In this document: positions 10,104 to 17,060 of the stretch, piece after piece
Numbering within the stretch: position 1 is the stretch's first letter
Layout of the letters: the number at the start of each line of letters is the position of its first letter
Source: Polytrichum commune
Taxonomy: Eukaryota > Streptophyta > Polytrichopsida > Polytrichales > Polytrichaceae
NCBI GenBank assembly: GCA_950295325.1
Contig: OX485808.1
Location: forward strand, 4,776,501 to 4,840,500
DNA: 64,000 bases
Reading direction: 5' to 3'
Notes under the pieces: generated by a model
The model's input: only the letters and a program-made list of their open reading frames with translations
Databases searched by the model: none
What the model was told of the DNA's origin: nothing
Translations under genes and position numbers: made by a program

Positions 10104-10360
10104 CACAAAGGATTGCAGTACGAGATGCTCCGACATTTTCTACCCATATTTGAGGGTAGGCGAGTCCTACGCAAGCTAATGAAAGCCTTACAAAACCTGC
10201 ACGATCGCAAGATGTTGAGCATGTACATGTGTTCCACGCCCAACCTGTTGCGATCGTGCAGGTGTTGTAAGGCTTTCATTAGCTTGCGCAGGACTGGCCT
10301 ACCTTCAAATATGGGTAGAAAATATCGAAGCATCTCGTACAGCACATGCAATCCTCTGTG
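10104..10360. repeat. Foldback made of TND-like coding sequence (about 110-bp arms)
   Basis: The left arm (10104-10210) is in the plus-sense coding orientation of the gene. The right arm (10249-10360) is the resident minus-strand copy. They are near-perfect reverse complements around a loop of about 38 bp, for example CGATCGCAA at 10202-10210 against TTGCGATCG at 10249-10257. The arms correspond to the part of the gene encoding LHVLYEMLRYFLPIFEGRPVLRK. The left arm lacks 6 bp present in the right near position 10120. The structure would make a long hairpin RNA matching intact copies A and B. Confidence 0.85.
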
Positions 10361-10638: not shown

Positions 10639-10643
10639 CTTTC
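10639..10643. other. 5-bp target-site duplication (left) of the copia element
   Basis: CTTTC, repeated directly after the 3' LTR at 16504-16508. The intact gene copies have one GAAAG at the matching place (minus-strand sense). Confidence 0.9.
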
Positions 10644-10825
10644 TGTTGGACCGTTGCCCACAAGCCCTTCTACTATTTACTGTTACTGCTGTACTTTAGG
10701 GTTAACCTTTAAGATTAGGTTTAGAATTAGGTTTAGGATTAGGGCTAATCTTTGTACTTATACCTGTGAGCTCCCAGCTCTCAGGTGAACTGATTCGTTC
10801 CAAGACAGTGTTTCTGTCTTCAACA
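10644..10825 (+). repeat. 5' LTR of the copia element
   Basis: Starts TGTTGGACC and ends TTCAACA, with canonical TG...CA ends. 182 bp, identical by eye to 16322-16503. It contains several degenerate repeats around GATTAGGTTTAG (about 10710-10745). Confidence 0.95.
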
Positions 10826-10843
10826 TGGTATCAGAGCAAGGTT
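10826..10843 (+). promoter_or_regulatory. Primer binding site, initiator-Met tRNA type
   Basis: TGGTATCAGAGCAAGGTT follows the 5' LTR immediately. TGGTATCAGAGC is complementary to the 3' end of plant initiator methionine tRNA, the usual primer of plant copia elements. Confidence 0.9.
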
Positions 10844-11147
10844 ACCTCCACCTCGCTATGGTAGGAAGTAGTGATATCTCTCCCCTCTTGTCTACTTATC
10901 TTTGAGGCTCCGCTCTTGAGGATCTGAAGTAGTACTAAGTCATAGTAGCGCGAGAAAATTGTCTATGAGCTTGCATTGTAGTTCTTCTTTCTCTGCCGTA
11001 AGGTTCTTGATCACTTCTTCTTGTCGTCTTACGGACTCCGAATACCTCATTAGCAGCTCTTCGTTCTGAGCTTTAACTCTCTTGATCACTTCTTCATGTC
11101 GGCTTAAAGTAGACGACAAAAGTCTGTAGAAAAGAGTACGAGTCTAG

Positions 11148-14100
11148 ATGTCCATTATAGAGAGGGATACTGAGAACACGTTGCGAGTCAGCAACAACGG
11201 ATTCACTACCATGGCTGGAGACAATGGATTACCAGAAACTTATCATCTGGAGGGAGGCAACAACTTTGGAGTTTGGGCCTACAGGATGAAGAATCTGCTC
11301 CAGAGGGACGGACGTTTTCACTACTGCATTACCCCGCCAAAAGAGATCATGAGCGAGGAGGAGAAGACGGCACGGCAACAAGTCTTGAGCATCATCAACA
11401 GCAATGCAAAGAACACTGCTCTCAAGCTTCTACGTCGATACAAAGATCCTTACGAATGCTGGACTGGGTTGAAGACTAGGTACGAGTCTGACAGCGGTCC
11501 TCGTCGTGTCATGCTTATTGACAAGTTTTTCTCCCTAAGGAAAACTGACTCCATCTCAATGGATGATCATCTCACTGAAGTTAAAGAGATTGCTAACCTC
11601 TTAGAGGAAGTTGAAGTCAAACTCCCGGAGGACATCATAGTGTATTATACACTTAAGAATCTGCCAAAGGAGTACGAAATCTTCAGACGAATGCAGATTG
11701 GCGGACAGTCCTTACCTACCTATGAGCAGCTTGAAGCCAAGCTCATTTCAGAGGAGACCTCTATCAAACTCGAGAGTCAGCATAGAGAAGATGGTGAAGC
11801 CTTCTTCTCACACCATGATAGATTCAGGCGACATCAGAATGTCTCACGTTTTCCGCCACAGATGGCTCAGAACCCAAGGCACGGTTACGCGAACAGGCGC
11901 TCTCCAGACTCGGGAGGATCATTTAGCATCAGACCTTCGACGCATACCGAATTCGGCGGATCATCCACACAGAGACCACAACATCAACAGAAGCCTTTCG
12001 GTTCTGCACCGAGACTTCAACCTAACTACCAACCTCGTTATCGACCCAGGGGTCCGGACAAGCCGCGGAGTGACAGATGCAACTACTGCGGTCTTGAAGG
12101 TCACTTTGAAAGAGAATGTGATCTCCGCTCTATTCTAGACCGGATGAAAGACTACGAGCAACGCCTCTTACAACAACGCAACAGAAACCTGAACGGACAG
12201 GTACATCACCTAGAGGAGCCGGCCGAACCTTTCAACTCCGAACAGGACTCACCCAACTTCGAAACAGCAGATGAAGTTGTAGATGCATGTCTAGTAGAGT
12301 TGAACTTATTGGAGACACCATCTCAGACTCCTCTCTGGTACTTAGACTCAGGAGCCACCCACCATGTTTCGGGTGACTCATCAGCTTTTTCTTCCATACA
12401 ACCAACTAGCGGGTCGCAGGTTAGATCCGCAGGCGGTCAGAGTCATCATGTTGTTGGAGTCGGGAATGCCGACATTCAACTATCCTCAGGTGCAATAAAA
12501 TCTATCCCTTCTATTCTGTACACCCCGGGTATTACTAAGAACCTCTTGAGCGTAGGGGCTTTGACTGACCACCAGAAAACTCTAGTTTTTCGCTCCAATG
12601 GGTGTTATGTTATTGATAATGCGACCCTTATAGTAGAAAATTTTGCTCCGAGAGAGACAAGCAGAGGACTGTACAGGTTAACCGGTACACGGACAACCAC
12701 GGCACCCGAAGTAAATGCCATTTATCCTACTTCGCAAGCCACGTTGTGGCATAAGAGACTTGGCCATTTTCATACAAAAGGCCTACAGCGCATGATCCAA
12801 TTCAACGCTGTTAGAGGACTTCCCCATCTTCACTTCTCTAGACATACCTGTGATGGGTGCCAATTCGGCAAGCACACCAGAACAAAACTTCCCAAGATAA
12901 CTACACGTCAAACTTCAAAAATTCTAGAGCTAGTACACTCAGATGTGTGCGGACCTTTCAGGACTACATCTCTCGGGGGATCTCGCTATTTCGTCACATT
13001 TATTGACGATTTTTCTAGAAAGACATGGATCTATTTTATTGCCAACAAAAATCAAGTGCTGGAGAAATTCCAACACTTTGTACACCTTGTGGAAACATCC
13101 ACATGTCAAGCTGTTCAAGCACTCCGAACCGATAATGGTGGCGAGTATACGTCCAAAACTTTTGCAGCATTCTGCTCTTCGAAAGGAATCGCTCGGGAAT
13201 TGCCGCCCCCGTATACTCCAGAGCGCAACGGAGTAGCAGAACGCCGGAATCGTTCTCTCCTCGACATCACAAGATGTCTTCTCATCGACAAATCTCTTCC
13301 CGCGTACCTGTGGGGAGAAGCAGTTCAAGCTGCCGCAAACATCTTGAACCTACGCTCCACAAAACGTCATCCTGCCAAAACTCCGCACGAACTCTTTACT
13401 GGTATGAAGCCTTCCATCAGCTACCTTCGAATTTTCGGTTCTCCAGTGTATGCTCATGTTCCTAAGACCCATCGCTCCAAGCTTGAACCCCGCTCTGAGA
13501 AATGCCTTATGCTGAGCTTCGACGAAGCAGCAAAGGCATATCGCTGCTTTCGCCCTTCGACAAAGAAGGTGTTTGTTTCTCGCGACGTTTTCATTGACGA
13601 GGCAGCATCACTACCTCCTACATCGAGCCACAACGCTCCTGTTGCGGACACCACTCCTGCTCCTACAAGAGCGGAAGAGCTGCAGTCTCTCCCAGTTCCA
13701 TGCATATATTCTCCCTCACCCACTCATGACGCAGACAGCATGGCGCCGCTACCTGCGACCCCCCTACCCCCATTGCTCACCACAACCCCCGGTGTTCCCA
13801 TACCTCCTGACATTGATGTCAATCCTCCCTCGCCGCTGCTCACCACTCCTCTCTCTCCTAACCCACCTTCTCTCCACCCTCCCAGACGCTCTCAGCGAAT
13901 TCGTCAGTTTCCACGCCATCTACACGATTTTGCTGCCCAGGTTCAACTCCACGAATCTACCCCAGAGGCTCCCACAGACGACATAACCTTTAAGCAGGCT
14001 CAATATCATCCCAATTGGAGAGTGGCCATGCAGGAGGAAATCAACTCCATCTACAAAAATAACACCTGGTCTCTTGTTCCTCTACCCCCGAACACCAAAG

Positions 14101-15509
14101 CAATTACATCACGTTGGGTATACAAAATCAAACCAGGACTCGACGGCAAACTCTCGAAGTACAAGGCTCGACTCGTGGCTCGCGGCTTCGAGCAAACAGA
14201 GGGCGTGGACTTTCTCGATACATTTGCACCTGTGGTGCGTTGGGAGACAATTCGTGCTCTCCTCGCAATTGCGGTACACCTAAACTGGCCTATTCATCAA
14301 CTTGATGTACTTACAGCCTTCTTAAATGGAATCCTCAAGGAGGATGTATACATGCTTCAACCGCCTGGTTTTCTACAACCTGGCACAGAAAATCTTGTCT
14401 GCAAACTCCACAAAGCGCTATACGGACTGAAGCAGAGTCCACGAGCTTGGTACGCTCGCCTTCACGCGGCGCTCCTAGCCTGGAAATTGGTTCAATCGTC
14501 ATCCGATCCTAACCTCTACTATGCTCATATTGGAAGTGACACTGTTGCCTTGCTTGTCTACGTGGACGACATCCTTCTTACAGGTAGCAACTCGCAGCTC
14601 CTTGCTCAACTCAAAGCTCACCTCCACCAGAATTTCTGCACCAACGACTTAGGTCCCATTCAACGGTACCTTGGAGTGCAGTTCGACCGCCAACCTTCAA
14701 GTCTACGCATGCACCAGACCGCATACGCTCACAGCATCCTTCGGCAATTCGGCATGGAGAATTGCTCTCCCTCTACGACCCCCCTACCTGAAGGTACAGC
14801 ACTATCCAAAAATTCTGCCACCCCCCCAGTTGATGCGACTCTCTACCGAATGTTGGTTGGAAAGCTTCTCTTTCTCACAAAGACGCGCCCAGACATTTCC
14901 CATGCAGTCAGCGTTGTGAGCAGATTTATGCAGAGTCCCCAGGAAGCACACCTTCAAGCGGCCAAGCACATCCTCCGCTACATTCGGCGCCATCCAGACC
15001 TTGGCTTGCTTTTCAAGCAAGGGGAGGATAATTGTCTGAATGGGTACACCGACGCCGATTATGGACAAGACATCGATGATAGAATATCTGTGGGGGCTTA
15101 CATTTTCTTTCTTGGTAGCTCGCCTATTTCATGGAATTCTAAAAAACAATCCAGTACCTCAAGATCCTCATGCGAATCTGAATATAGGGCTCTTGCCCAA
15201 TGCACTTGCGAAGCAGTCTGGATTCGAAGACTTCTGAACGAACTCAGGGTTTTGGAAAACAAACCTACCAACATTTACTGCGACAACCAAAGCGCAATCA
15301 AACTTAGCTACAATCCGGTGTTCCATGACAAATCTAAACACTTTGAGATTGACTATCACGTTACCCGGCAAAAAGTAGAAAACAACACCATCAAGGTCAA
15401 GTTTATGTCATCTCAAGATCAACCTGCTGACATTCTTACGAAACCTCTTGGGCGAATCAAATTCGAGACATGCAGACAAAAATTACAACTCTGCGGCCAC
15501 TTCATCTAA
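11148..15509 (+). CDS. Copia gag-pol polyprotein (1453 aa)
   Basis: One open frame encodes all copia functions. The Gag part begins with a YHLEGGNNFGVWAYRMK segment typical of copia gag and has a CCHC zinc knuckle at residues about 311-324 (CNYCGLEGHFEREC). The aspartic protease active site is WYLDSGATHH near residue 400. The pre-integrase zinc region (LWHKRLGHFH ... CDGCQFGKH) lies at about 534-575. Integrase acidic residues lie in HSDVCGPF (about 598), RTDNGGEYTS (about 660) and the PERNGVAERRN region (about 695). Reverse transcriptase includes DVLTAFLNG and the YVDD catalytic motif near residue 1138. RNase H carries GYTDADYGQD near 1300 and SSCESEYRAL. The ATG at 11148 is the first in frame; a second ATG 20 codons later is also possible. 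No stop or frameshift was seen. Confidence 0.95.
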   Translation: MSIIERDTENTLRVSNNGFTTMAGDNGLPETYHLEGGNNFGVWAYRMKNLLQRDGRFHYCITPPKEIMSEEEKTARQQVLSIINSNAKNTALKLLRRYKDPYECWTGLKTRYESDSGPRRVMLIDKFFSLRKTDSISMDDHLTEVKEIANLLEEVEVKLPEDIIVYYTLKNLPKEYEIFRRMQIGGQSLPTYEQLEAKLISEETSIKLESQHREDGEAFFSHHDRFRRHQNVSRFPPQMAQNPRHGYANRRSPDSGGSFSIRPSTHTEFGGSSTQRPQHQQKPFGSAPRLQPNYQPRYRPRGPDKPRSDRCNYCGLEGHFERECDLRSILDRMKDYEQRLLQQRNRNLNGQVHHLEEPAEPFNSEQDSPNFETADEVVDACLVELNLLETPSQTPLWYLDSGATHHVSGDSSAFSSIQPTSGSQVRSAGGQSHHVVGVGNADIQLSSGAIKSIPSILYTPGITKNLLSVGALTDHQKTLVFRSNGCYVIDNATLIVENFAPRETSRGLYRLTGTRTTTAPEVNAIYPTSQATLWHKRLGHFHTKGLQRMIQFNAVRGLPHLHFSRHTCDGCQFGKHTRTKLPKITTRQTSKILELVHSDVCGPFRTTSLGGSRYFVTFIDDFSRKTWIYFIANKNQVLEKFQHFVHLVETSTCQAVQALRTDNGGEYTSKTFAAFCSSKGIARELPPPYTPERNGVAERRNRSLLDITRCLLIDKSLPAYLWGEAVQAAANILNLRSTKRHPAKTPHELFTGMKPSISYLRIFGSPVYAHVPKTHRSKLEPRSEKCLMLSFDEAAKAYRCFRPSTKKVFVSRDVFIDEAASLPPTSSHNAPVADTTPAPTRAEELQSLPVPCIYSPSPTHDADSMAPLPATPLPPLLTTTPGVPIPPDIDVNPPSPLLTTPLSPNPPSLHPPRRSQRIRQFPRHLHDFAAQVQLHESTPEAPTDDITFKQAQYHPNWRVAMQEEINSIYKNNTWSLVPLPPNTKAITSRWVYKIKPGLDGKLSKYKARLVARGFEQTEGVDFLDTFAPVVRWETIRALLAIAVHLNWPIHQLDVLTAFLNGILKEDVYMLQPPGFLQPGTENLVCKLHKALYGLKQSPRAWYARLHAALLAWKLVQSSSDPNLYYAHIGSDTVALLVYVDDILLTGSNSQLLAQLKAHLHQNFCTNDLGPIQRYLGVQFDRQPSSLRMHQTAYAHSILRQFGMENCSPSTTPLPEGTALSKNSATPPVDATLYRMLVGKLLFLTKTRPDISHAVSVVSRFMQSPQEAHLQAAKHILRYIRRHPDLGLLFKQGEDNCLNGYTDADYGQDIDDRISVGAYIFFLGSSPISWNSKKQSSTSRSSCESEYRALAQCTCEAVWIRRLLNELRVLENKPTNIYCDNQSAIKLSYNPVFHDKSKHFEIDYHVTRQKVENNTIKVKFMSSQDQPADILTKPLGRIKFETCRQKLQLCGHFI

Positions 15510-16263
15510 CCCTTATCTGGTGTCGAGGGTAATACACCCTCATTGACTCATCAGTGGATGAAGCATAGGCCTCCCACTCCTCTTCTTCACTCCAACCAAT
15601 TTCTCTCCACTGTCCACTCGGGAATTCGCCTAGAGGCGCAGACACAGAGGAGGCGCTTGAACCGCTGCGACTCCCACTGCTCGACCTCTCTAATTTCGGC
15701 CTCCTTACAAACCTTCTCGCAGCTCGCCGGACTCCTTCCTCGACAGGGCGGAAGCTTTCAACCCTCGACTGGCTTAACTCTGTCTGCTCCGAATAATGTT
15801 CAATGCGCTCCGACAACAAAACGGCGAACGACTCCAACTCCCTTTCCACTCGCTCTCGCAGTGATGGACGTGGCTCGCAACGGTCTACTAAATGTTTCAG
15901 AAACCCCGGCGAATCCACTCGCACCATTTCCAGTGCAGCCCATTCTACTGTCCCTCCTACCTTCTCTCTCCAGGTTTTACTCACTCTTCTGAGTCTCCAT
16001 AAGAGTGAAATATTCACCTTCCTATGGAGGAGAGGCCAAATCCTCTCAAGTACTAATTCATCACTGAGAGGGGGCATCAGGGTTCTCCCTTCCGCTCCCC
16101 TTCCATGATTCCTCTCTCTTGGAATCCTGTCACTTACATCGAAGACCCGGGCTTCAATCAAATCTATCAACTGGGAAATTCCCCGTTTCATCATCATGAG
16201 TATCGTCCACACCAACAGACTCAATAGACGGATCCATGTGATCTCTCTTAATCGCAAGTCCAT
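15502..16263 (-). CDS. Antisense ORF of the copia element, F-box-like (253 aa)
   Basis: A 253-codon frame on the minus strand fills the space between pol and the 3' LTR and overlaps the end of pol by 8 bp tail to tail. Residues about 9-26 form a hydrophobic segment (WIRLLSLLVWTILMMM) that could anchor in a membrane. Residues 64-112 read like an F-box: PPLSDELVLERIWPLL, then SLLWRLRRVSKTWRE and a W/A-rich end. The next part is charged and helical, and residues about 195-215 are serine/glycine-rich. F-box proteins normally recruit targets to SCF ubiquitin ligases; whether this one does is unknown. Such an ORF is not part of the standard copia gene set. It may be a captured host gene or a lineage-specific accessory gene. 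Family assignment is by eye only. Confidence 0.55.
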   Translation of the reverse strand: MDLRLREITWIRLLSLLVWTILMMMKRGISQLIDLIEARVFDVSDRIPRERNHGRGAEGRTLMPPLSDELVLERIWPLLHRKVNISLLWRLRRVSKTWREKVGGTVEWAALEMVRVDSPGFLKHLVDRCEPRPSLRERVERELESFAVLLSERIEHYSEQTELSQSRVESFRPVEEGVRRAARRFVRRPKLERSSSGSRSGSSASSVSAPLGEFPSGQWREIGWSEEEEWEAYASSTDESMRVYYPRHQIRVR

Positions 16264-16312
16264 TCTTCGTTTTTCTTTGCTTTTGCTCTTACGTTGTCAG
16301 GTCTTTGCGTGC

Positions 16313-16321
16313 AAGAGGGGG
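16313..16321 (+). promoter_or_regulatory. Polypurine tract of the copia element
   Basis: AAGAGGGGG lies directly before the 3' LTR, the usual place and composition for the plus-strand primer. Confidence 0.85.
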
Positions 16322-16503
16322 TGTTGGACCGTTGCCCACAAGCCCTTCTACTATTTACTGTTACTGCTGTACTTTAGGGTTAACCTTTAAGATTAGGTTT
16401 AGAATTAGGTTTAGGATTAGGGCTAATCTTTGTACTTATACCTGTGAGCTCCCAGCTCTCAGGTGAACTGATTCGTTCCAAGACAGTGTTTCTGTCTTCA
16501 ACA
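16322..16503 (+). repeat. 3' LTR of the copia element
   Basis: 182 bp, identical by eye to the 5' LTR, followed by the target duplication CTTTC at 16504-16508. Confidence 0.95.
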
Positions 16504-16866
16504 CTTTCACGCCTTTCAAATACATATCAATAGCATCCATGGAGGGCGTGGATGGTGAGGCTGCAGCACTAGTGCAAGGCTCGTTCGCATCACCCAATGT
16601 CGACTTGATGATGTCGGAGGTGACCTTTTCTTGCACTTGAACTCCGATGTTAGGCTTGCAAACCTTTGGCCACACGATCATCAGTCTGTGCAAAGCAACG
16701 TTTACGCTTGCCAGCCGCTGTGATCAGCGAAACCTCGGCACCCTCACTTTCTTTCCCGCCCTTCAAACTCATATCAATGGCATCCATGGAGGCCGCGGAT
16801 GTTGAGGTTATTGCAATGCAAGCCGGCTCGTTCACATTGTTTAGCAACGGCTTGTTGATTTCATGA
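16504..16866 (-). pseudogene. TND-like family gene, copy D, middle part (broken)
   Basis: Minus-strand continuation of copy D on the far side of the copia element. It covers the two long internal repeat modules (KPLLNNVNEPACIAITSTSA to the KGVKE end of the next module). Compared with A and B it has one extra base after the GTGGCCAA codons near 16665, so the frame shifts and a stop follows. At 16866 the homology ends abruptly and a plus-strand fragment of the same gene begins, a head-to-head junction. The first half of the gene is absent. Confidence 0.85.
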
Positions 16867-17060
16867 GAGTTGGCGCATTGGGTGATGGAACGATCCTTGC
16901 ACTAGTGCTGCAACCTCACCATGCACGCGCTCCATGGATGCTATTGATATGTACTTGAAGGGCGTGAAAGAAACTAATTAAGGGACCAGTGGCTTCGCTC
17001 CCAACGGCCACGCTTAAGTGCTGCTTTGCGCAAACGTGCAATGAAACGGTATAGCAACTT
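16867..17060 (+). pseudogene. TND-like family gene, copy C (deleted fragment)
   Basis: Plus-strand fragment corresponding to about 23585-23845 of copy A: the third internal module (SMDAIDMYLKGVKE) and the SCFAQT region. It jumps with an internal deletion to the AATGAAACGGTA segment and then stops. It has frame-breaking changes, including a stop just after the KGVKE codons (AAACTAATTAAG). Confidence 0.8.

What the first reader, a model, noticed from the sequence alone, without database searches (positions are those of the whole stretch)
15502..16263. Copia element with a 253-codon antisense F-box-like ORF between pol and the 3' LTR
Standard copia elements have nothing but a short noncoding stretch here. 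This one has a long antisense frame with a hydrophobic N-terminus, an F-box-like LSDELVLERIWPLL...WRLRRVSKTWRE segment and a Ser-rich tail, ending 8 bp inside pol. An accessory protein that engages SCF ubiquitin ligases could counter host silencing or integrase turnover; that role is speculation. It may also be a captured host gene.
Basis: partly seen in the sequence, partly recalled or inferred. Interest (0 to 1): 0.75.

Follow-up and report, generated by a model that had tools for sequence, protein, structure and literature searches.

The report
Conserved backwards gene in plant retrotransposons
A jumping gene in what is probably a moss genome carries an extra protein-coding gene on the opposite strand behind its replication genes; natural selection has kept this gene intact across long-diverged copies, and its protein weakly resembles the adaptors that plants use to mark proteins for destruction.

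Summary
A young Ty1/copia element (identical 182-bp LTRs, 5-bp target duplication, intact gag-pol) carries a 253-codon ATG-to-stop frame antisense between pol and the 3' LTR, overlapping pol by 8 bp. It is not chance. Of 30 homologous loci cut from the same genome, 29 lie antisense beside a copia RNase H; 18 of 24 checked carry an uninterrupted 238-253 codon frame at 47-60% identity. Synonymous sites are near saturation, yet in the ten least saturated pairs dN/dS is 0.14-0.26 (0.06-0.17 in the N-terminal 160 residues). This is a genuine accessory gene, as old as this copia clade; decayed relatives stand beside much more distant copia pols. Nine of ten other copia loci sampled show none. Pfam finds no F-box in any of 18 members. 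Profile comparison with 20 host F-boxes aligns the conserved core in register and beats 600 permuted controls, but probability is only 19% (75% with distant homologues, leaning on one row). The core also occurs in an ORF without pol nearby and in dispersed repeat ORFs. Best reading: an antisense accessory protein with an N-terminal membrane helix and a degenerate F-box-like fold. Antisense accessory genes are best known from gypsy elements; a copia one is a new variant.

The parts
10639..10643 (.). 5' copy of target-site duplication CTTTC
   Evidence: flanks of the two LTRs
10644..10825 (+). 5' LTR (TGTTGG...CAACA)
   Evidence: 182 bp, 100% identical to 3' LTR
10826..10837 (+). primer binding site TGGTATCAGAGC (initiator tRNA-Met type; label recalled)
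   Evidence: sequence
11148..15509 (+). intact copia gag-pol frame, 1453 codons
   Evidence: Retrotran_gag_2, gag_pre-integrs, rve, RVT_2, SH3_retrovirus, Pol_BBD
15502..16263 (-). antisense accessory gene (aORF), 253 codons
16132..16257 (-). aORF residues 3-44: long N-terminal helix with a 17-19 residue hydrophobic stretch, candidate membrane anchor
   Evidence: block pLDDT 81-95 over residues 1-40; the Kyte-Doolittle 19-residue maximum (1.58-2.05) starts at residue 7-15 in 18 of 18 members
15916..16080 (-). aORF residues 62-116: F-box-like core
15505..15606 (-). aORF residues 220-253: acidic/Ser stretch and C-terminal [YF]-P-R-H motif
   Evidence: P246 R247 H248 invariant in 18
16311..16321 (+). 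polypurine tract next to the 3' LTR
   Evidence: sequence; an equivalent lies upstream of the aORF ATG in relatives
16322..16503 (+). 3' LTR; begins 58 bp upstream of the aORF ATG
16435..16440 (-). TATAAG on the aORF strand, 177 bp before its ATG (near-palindromic, so also a sense TATA)
16375..16380 (-). telobox ACCCTA on the aORF strand, in the LTR
   Evidence: present in 16 of 16 copies, always on this strand
16504..16508 (.). 3' copy of target-site duplication CTTTC

Best explanation
It is an antisense accessory gene, inherited and selected along a Ty1/copia clade, for an approximately 240-250 residue protein: an N-terminal helix likely to anchor it in a membrane, a conserved all-helical core that is probably a degenerate F-box-like adaptor fold, a variable linker, and a conserved acidic/[YF]PRH tail. 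Shown: the gene, its conservation, its pairing with copia pol. Inferred: transcription from the 3' LTR on the minus strand (58 bp upstream; TATA and telobox on that strand); the protein docks on a host SKP1-type or similar adaptor surface at a membrane and changes the fate of a host factor that limits the element (silencing) or of an element protein, as F-box-like silencing suppressors of plant viruses do. Likelihoods: real selected gene 0.97; membrane helix 0.7; F-box-derived fold 0.45; acts through SKP1/SCF 0.2.
For: 30 homologous loci cut, 29 antisense beside RNase H of at least 64% identity. 18 of 24 checked intact. Over 117 high-divergence pairs mean pN is 0.325 (aORF), 0.243 (its first 160 residues), 0.106 (RNase H), with pS 0.77 and 0.80, so both genes share one history. 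Zero stops in frame in 16 of 16 intact copies, 77-335 in each other frame. Purine at -3 and G at +4 in 16 of 16 (the +4 G is also the first base of the invariant Asp2). AlphaFold with 18 rows: N-terminal helix 3-44 confident, then helices 68-82, 85-94, 96-102, 106-115 at low confidence. hhalign core vs 20 host F-boxes: score 18.9, 0 of 300 permuted F-boxes and 0 of 300 permuted cores reach it; with 15 distant rows score 26.4, probability 75%, 0 of 300 permuted reach it, best 18.7; four other aORF segments at most 0.46%.
Against: Pfam F-box models do not match any of 18 full members at E up to 1, nor 10 cores at E up to 10, while three host F-boxes score E 3.5e-11 to 7.6e-13. Without distant rows hhalign probability is 19%, with the four most distant rows dropped 17%; dropping one row (L046) takes 75% to 34%. 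The Pro of 'LP' is lost in the close clade. Core pLDDT is low, 41-64 per block of ten over residues 61-120. No expression data. One young pair (L023/L026) shows dN/dS 0.58 in the aORF and 1.22 in RNase H, as in decay after insertion. Hydropathy of the N-terminal stretch (1.58-2.05) is borderline for a transmembrane segment, and two members have a second stretch nearly as hydrophobic elsewhere (1.61 in L028, 1.38 in L023).
Confidence: 0.5

Rival explanations
1. A selected accessory protein whose core is a lineage-specific helical domain unrelated to F-boxes; it works in another way, for example as a membrane-tethered regulator of particle assembly, nuclear import or antisense control, like the nuclear proteins proposed for Grande and Retand.
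For: No Pfam match reaches a curated cut-off in members or cores; the only weak ones (GAPT E 0.24, ATR1_N 0.13, DUF6587 0.024) are scattered and unrelated. Loss of the key Pro. F-box similarity covers about 24 columns without distant rows. Other known antisense accessory proteins have no known function (PMC7264820).
Against: Alignment to F-boxes falls in the right register, beats all 600 permuted controls, and is absent for four other segments; distant homologues show LP and V-S-K-x-W as F-boxes do.
Confidence: 0.42
2. Captured host gene: a host F-box-like family, of which L088 is a survivor, was the source of the element's gene in the ancestor of the clade. (This concerns origin and can hold together with either reading of function.)
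For: L088 (C3:52617600-52619900) has a 261-codon stop-to-stop frame with the core (domain E 6.6e-10 in a six-frame search of that stretch), different flanks and no copia pol match in the 8.3 kb read.
Against: The same core is found in many dispersed repeat ORFs, so L088 may equally be a domesticated or passenger piece of mobile DNA. No intron positions or outgroup could be tested.
Confidence: 0.35
3. The protein matters little; the selected feature is antisense RNA that tunes sense RNA by double-strand formation.
For: Antisense RNA is a proposed role in the review; telobox and TATA in the LTR fit a minus-strand promoter.
Against: Selection acts on amino acids: mean pN 0.325 versus pS 0.77, and third codon positions differ most.
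Confidence: 0.04
4. Chance open frame in a stop-poor stretch.
For: 2 of 2000 shuffles reach this length.
Against: Conservation across near-saturated synonymous divergence.
Confidence: 0.01

Closest known systems
aORF-3R / eORF-3'R of plant LTR retrotransposons (Grande gene23, RIRE2, Retand ORF4, PvRetro13)
   Same: Antisense frame between pol and 3' LTR, present in most copies of a family, constrained, no known function (PMC7264820, parts 1 and 2 of 3 read; PMC11963269, abstract read).
   Different: [quoted passage not shown] here it is Ty1/copia with an 812-bp region almost filled by the gene. No TRP28/Transposase_28 or SMC match was found by Pfam; the core is F-box-like at best.
SIRE eORF-3'F (env-like) of Ty1/copia
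   Same: Extra ORF after pol in a copia element.
   Different: Sense orientation, heterogeneous sequences (PMC6317226, passages read). The survey's 250-codon cut-off would miss most of the copies here (238-253 codons).
Viral F-box-like silencing suppressors: polerovirus P0, crinivirus p22
   Same: [quoted passage not shown] search listing and start of abstracts only).
   Different: No sequence comparison was made; the resemblance is only the proposed mode of action.
RLC5 copia of Physcomitrium
   Same: The dominant copia family of this genome clusters at one place on each of seven large contigs, like RLC5 (PMC7466625, passages read).
   Different: The five members sampled from that family show no aORF.

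Membership tests
aORF-3R (antisense accessory ORF between pol and 3' LTR) | Antisense frame between pol and 3' LTR | tested here: met
aORF-3R (antisense accessory ORF between pol and 3' LTR) | Present in most copies of the family and constrained like other element proteins | tested here: met
   29 of 30 loci beside RNase H (the loci were found by the aORF itself, so this does not count copies that lost it); constraint, weaker than in RNase H
aORF-3R (antisense accessory ORF between pol and 3' LTR) | Transcribed from its own or an antisense promoter | not testable with these tools
   only TATA/telobox motifs seen
F-box protein (Pfam PF00646/PF12937) | Model match above the curated cut-off | tested here: not met
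   none; one distant relative, L043, reaches PF12937 with E 0.027, 14.7 bits against a cut-off of 24.3
F-box protein (Pfam PF00646/PF12937) | LP at the start of helix 1 (recalled) | tested here: not met
   S/D/N/T in place of P in 18 of 18 close members; LP present in distant L039, L044, L046, L088, L092, L095
F-box protein (Pfam PF00646/PF12937) | Profile similarity over the three-helix domain | tested here: inconclusive
   hhalign 19% / 75%, above all permuted controls, dependent on distant rows
F-box protein (Pfam PF00646/PF12937) | Binds SKP1 | not testable with these tools
   none
Captured host gene | Homologous host gene outside elements, older than the element copy | tested here: inconclusive
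   L088 candidate; same core in dispersed repeats
Ty1/copia element | Integrase before reverse transcriptase, copia gag, LTRs, target duplication | tested here: met

The most novel reading that the evidence does not exclude
A Ty1/copia clade has kept an antisense-encoded, membrane-anchored F-box-like adaptor, expressed from its 3' LTR, that redirects a host ubiquitin ligase against silencing or to control element proteins; the same domain has spread through other repeats and an ORF outside elements of this lineage, so retrotransposons and host have traded a degradation adaptor.
Probability: 0.2. Interest if true: 0.85.

Novelty: new variant of a known kind. Interest (0 to 1): 0.56.

Why it matters
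[quoted passage not shown] A compact copia element with one well-constrained antisense gene and many diverged intact copies gives a clean system to ask what such genes do. If the F-box-like reading holds, it would be a retrotransposon counterpart of viral silencing suppressors that use the ubiquitin system.

Tried and rejected
Chance frame: rejected. Sense-strand ORFs in the same stretch: the 144-aa one matches 3 of 15 relatives, partly or with stops; the 101-aa one matches in 15 of 15, with stops in 9 of them, which I read as the shadow of aORF conservation. Canonical F-box by HMM: rejected. PDB by sequence: nothing for the single protein; for the profile one weak hit, E 0.25, to a spliceosomal snRNP-B chain over residues 133-215, dismissed as compositional. 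AlphaFold without alignment is poor, mean pLDDT 51; with 18 rows it is 54, confident for residues 1-40 and 70-80 over 121-150. Rfam on the window: nothing at gathering scores. Bacterial promoter scan of the region: uninformative for a plant. RNase H tree: distant aORF-bearing rows interleave with aORF-lacking ones on long, poorly supported branches, so one gain with losses, or several gains, is unresolved (rows L047, L036, L051 and L041 dropped for under 100 residues, L001-L008 left out as duplicates). L044 and L045 have no copia pol match in about 3 kb on each side but are broken frames, so they were treated as remnants. L043 carries the core in the same orientation as its nearest pol, against the general rule.
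Full report
The element. The window lies at G000:C6:4776501-4840500 of a 408-Mb assembly in 64 contigs. A copia element spans 10644-16503: two 182-bp LTRs with no difference, CTTTC on both sides, TGGTATCAGAGC after the 5' LTR, and one intact gag-pol frame at 11148-15509 with copia gag, integrase and reverse transcriptase. Identical LTRs mean a recent insertion. The host is a land plant, probably a moss: this is an inference from the primer site, the seven contigs of over 42 Mb seen in the tables and the RLC5-like clustering of the dominant copia; no call named it.

The antisense frame. 15502-16263 (-) is open for 253 codons and overlaps the pol end by 8 bp. It fills nearly the whole 812-bp stretch between pol and the 3' LTR, and its ATG lies 58 bp from that LTR. 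Length alone is moderately unusual: 2 of 2000 dinucleotide shuffles reach it.

Conservation. A DNA search gave 25 matches and a protein search 60 in the same genome; both are lower bounds by the tool's own note. Thirty loci were cut from the protein search. In 29 of 30 the frame is antisense beside a copia RNase H of at least 64% identity; in L038 the only RNase H is a 36% piece in the same orientation. Of 24 loci checked, 18 have an uninterrupted frame of 238-253 codons, two pairs of them near-identical, and 6 are broken; 6 of the 30 were not checked. In the alignment of these 18, identity to the window protein is 47-60%, and 47 columns are invariant.

Selection. Among seven copies (21 pairs), third codon positions differ at 0.46-0.61 against 0.21-0.35 at second positions. 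Over 117 diverged pairs mean pN is 0.325 for the aORF, 0.243 for its first 160 residues and 0.106 for RNase H; pS is 0.77 and 0.80. In the ten least saturated of the diverged pairs (pS 0.55-0.67) dN/dS is 0.14-0.26 for the aORF, 0.06-0.17 for its N-terminal part, and 0.03-0.09 for RNase H in the seven of them where it was measured. Equal pS in the two genes argues for shared descent rather than swapping. Of three young pairs, two have too few changes to judge, and L023/L026 shows 0.58 in the aORF and 1.22 in RNase H, as expected of decaying copies (L023 has a stop in RNase H). Over the aORF span of 16 non-redundant intact copies the frame has no stops and the other five have 335, 258, 155, 95 and 77; these copies had been picked as intact, so the contrast is illustrative and the dN/dS is the test.

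How far it reaches. Fifteen weaker places were fetched. Several carry decayed aORF beside copia pol as distant as 29-37% identity over the longest reverse-transcriptase match (L039, L046, L049 antisense; L043 same orientation). Of ten further copia loci picked from the 150 scored reverse-transcriptase matches (1204 candidates), nine show no aORF in the 1.5-1.6 kb read after RNase H and one (L063) does. Five of the nine (L054, L055, L056, L060, L062) fall in one clade of the tree; two of these five (L054, L055) were taken from the clusters that this family forms at one place on each of seven large contigs. Its 3' LTR appears to follow pol within about 50 bp, by eye. On the RNase H tree of 47 rows, the 34 rows of the aORF clade (L038 probably misplaced there) are parted from 13 others by a branch with 99/93 support; those 13 are the nine lacking rows and four distant aORF-bearing ones, whose order is not resolved. 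So the gene is at least as old as this clade and perhaps much older.

Anatomy of the protein. AlphaFold with 18 rows has mean pLDDT 54. It is confident for a helix over residues 3-44, which holds the most hydrophobic 19-residue stretch of every member (Kyte-Doolittle 1.58-2.05), a borderline membrane anchor. Residues 121-150 reach 70-80. Helices at 68-82, 85-94, 96-102 and 106-115 are predicted with low confidence and match the order of F-box helices (recalled). The tail after 170 is unstructured and ends in an invariant P-R-H.

Is it an F-box? Pfam says no for 18 members and 10 cores. Three host F-boxes score strongly under the same search, and none of the 150 listed F-box places in the genome coincides with a listed aORF place, read by eye. 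Comparing the core with an alignment of 20 of those host F-boxes gives probability 19%, score 18.9, against means near 10 and maxima 17.1 and 18.1 in two sets of 300 permuted controls. Adding 15 distant homologous stretches found by the aORF profile, not by F-box likeness, gives 75%, score 26.4, control maximum 18.7 of 300. Four other segments give at most 0.46%. Removing any single distant row leaves 70-80%, except L046, which takes it to 34%; removing the four most distant rows takes it to 17%; five half-sets of F-boxes give 55-88%. My reading: a degenerate F-box-like fold is somewhat less than even odds. The close clade lacks the Pro of 'LP', so ordinary SKP1 binding is doubtful.

Relatives outside the clade. 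L088 holds a 261-codon stop-to-stop frame with the core (domain E 6.6e-10 in a six-frame search of that stretch), without a copia pol match in the 8.3 kb read around it. A search with it lists 82 matches. By my count one is itself, 5 hit another exon-like part, 20 are copia aORF places and 56 are other dispersed places, 14 of them at E up to 0.001 and the rest weaker; many have open frames of about 190-240 codons and some look like identical copies. Three of these loci were read and show no convincing copia pol in 2.5-3.4 kb (matches at E 0.006 and 0.067 dismissed); the aORF profile hits them at domain E 6.9e-8, 7.4e-8 and 0.0012. They are probably further repeat families with a related domain. 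Whether elements took it from the host, or the reverse, is open.

Expression. The aORF-strand stretch 60-290 bp before the ATG holds ACCCTA in 16 of 16 copies (23 sites) and TAGGGT in none; 500 mononucleotide shuffles give mean 1.05 and maximum 6. TATA-like words on that strand lie between -160 and -228 in 9 of 16 and anywhere in 330 bp in 10 of 16, but where compared they are near-palindromic and could serve the sense promoter. Telobox is a known plant promoter element (recalled). A minus-strand promoter in the 3' LTR is therefore plausible, not shown.

Known or new. [quoted passage not shown] PMC11963269, abstract read). The plant-wide survey PMC6317226 (passages read) found extra ORFs of at least 250 codons in 582 copia elements, in 45 groups, and in the passages seen singles out only the sense SIRE one; orientations of the others are in supplements not seen, so an antisense copia ORF could be among them. 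Its cut-off would miss most copies here. Searches of the open-access library listed no paper that I recognised, from titles and starts of abstracts, as describing a conserved antisense gene in copia or an F-box-like retrotransposon protein; most subscription papers are not held. Viral F-box-like silencing suppressors exist (PMC6593998, PMC6784205; listing and start of abstracts) and are the model for the proposed action only.

Verdict. A real, selected antisense accessory gene in a copia clade; new variant of a known kind; mechanism open, with a membrane-tethered F-box-like adaptor as the best single guess.

Noticed in passing
G000:C1 33.41-33.47M, C2 47.27-47.33M, C3 33.16-33.20M, C4 35.45-35.52M, C5 46.55-46.61M, C6 25.46-25.49M, C7 13.58-13.68M: Copia elements with open frames up to 1363-1373 codons are packed at a single site on each of seven large contigs, probably centromeres, as RLC5 in Physcomitrium.
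   Followed up: partly
window 16375-16380 and LTRs of 15 relatives: Telobox ACCCTA kept on the aORF strand in 16 of 16 otherwise diverged copies; it could serve an antisense promoter, sense transcription or chromatin recruitment.
   Followed up: partly
L089-L088 (G000:C3:52614600-52619900): A tandem array of exon-like repeats (one weakly like Pfam PF03440, 24.6 bits, just under its cut-off of 25) runs up to an ORF that carries the aORF core.
   Followed up: partly
L092, L094, L095 and places: Dispersed repeat ORFs of about 190-240 codons share a related core (in L092 and L095 LP...IWPLL...LFKLR...W); element type unknown.
   Followed up: partly
window 10114-10344, and 16504-16586 with 16888-16970: Long inverted repeats flank the element: 110-nt arms 90% complementary, and 83-nt arms 93% complementary.
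   Followed up: no
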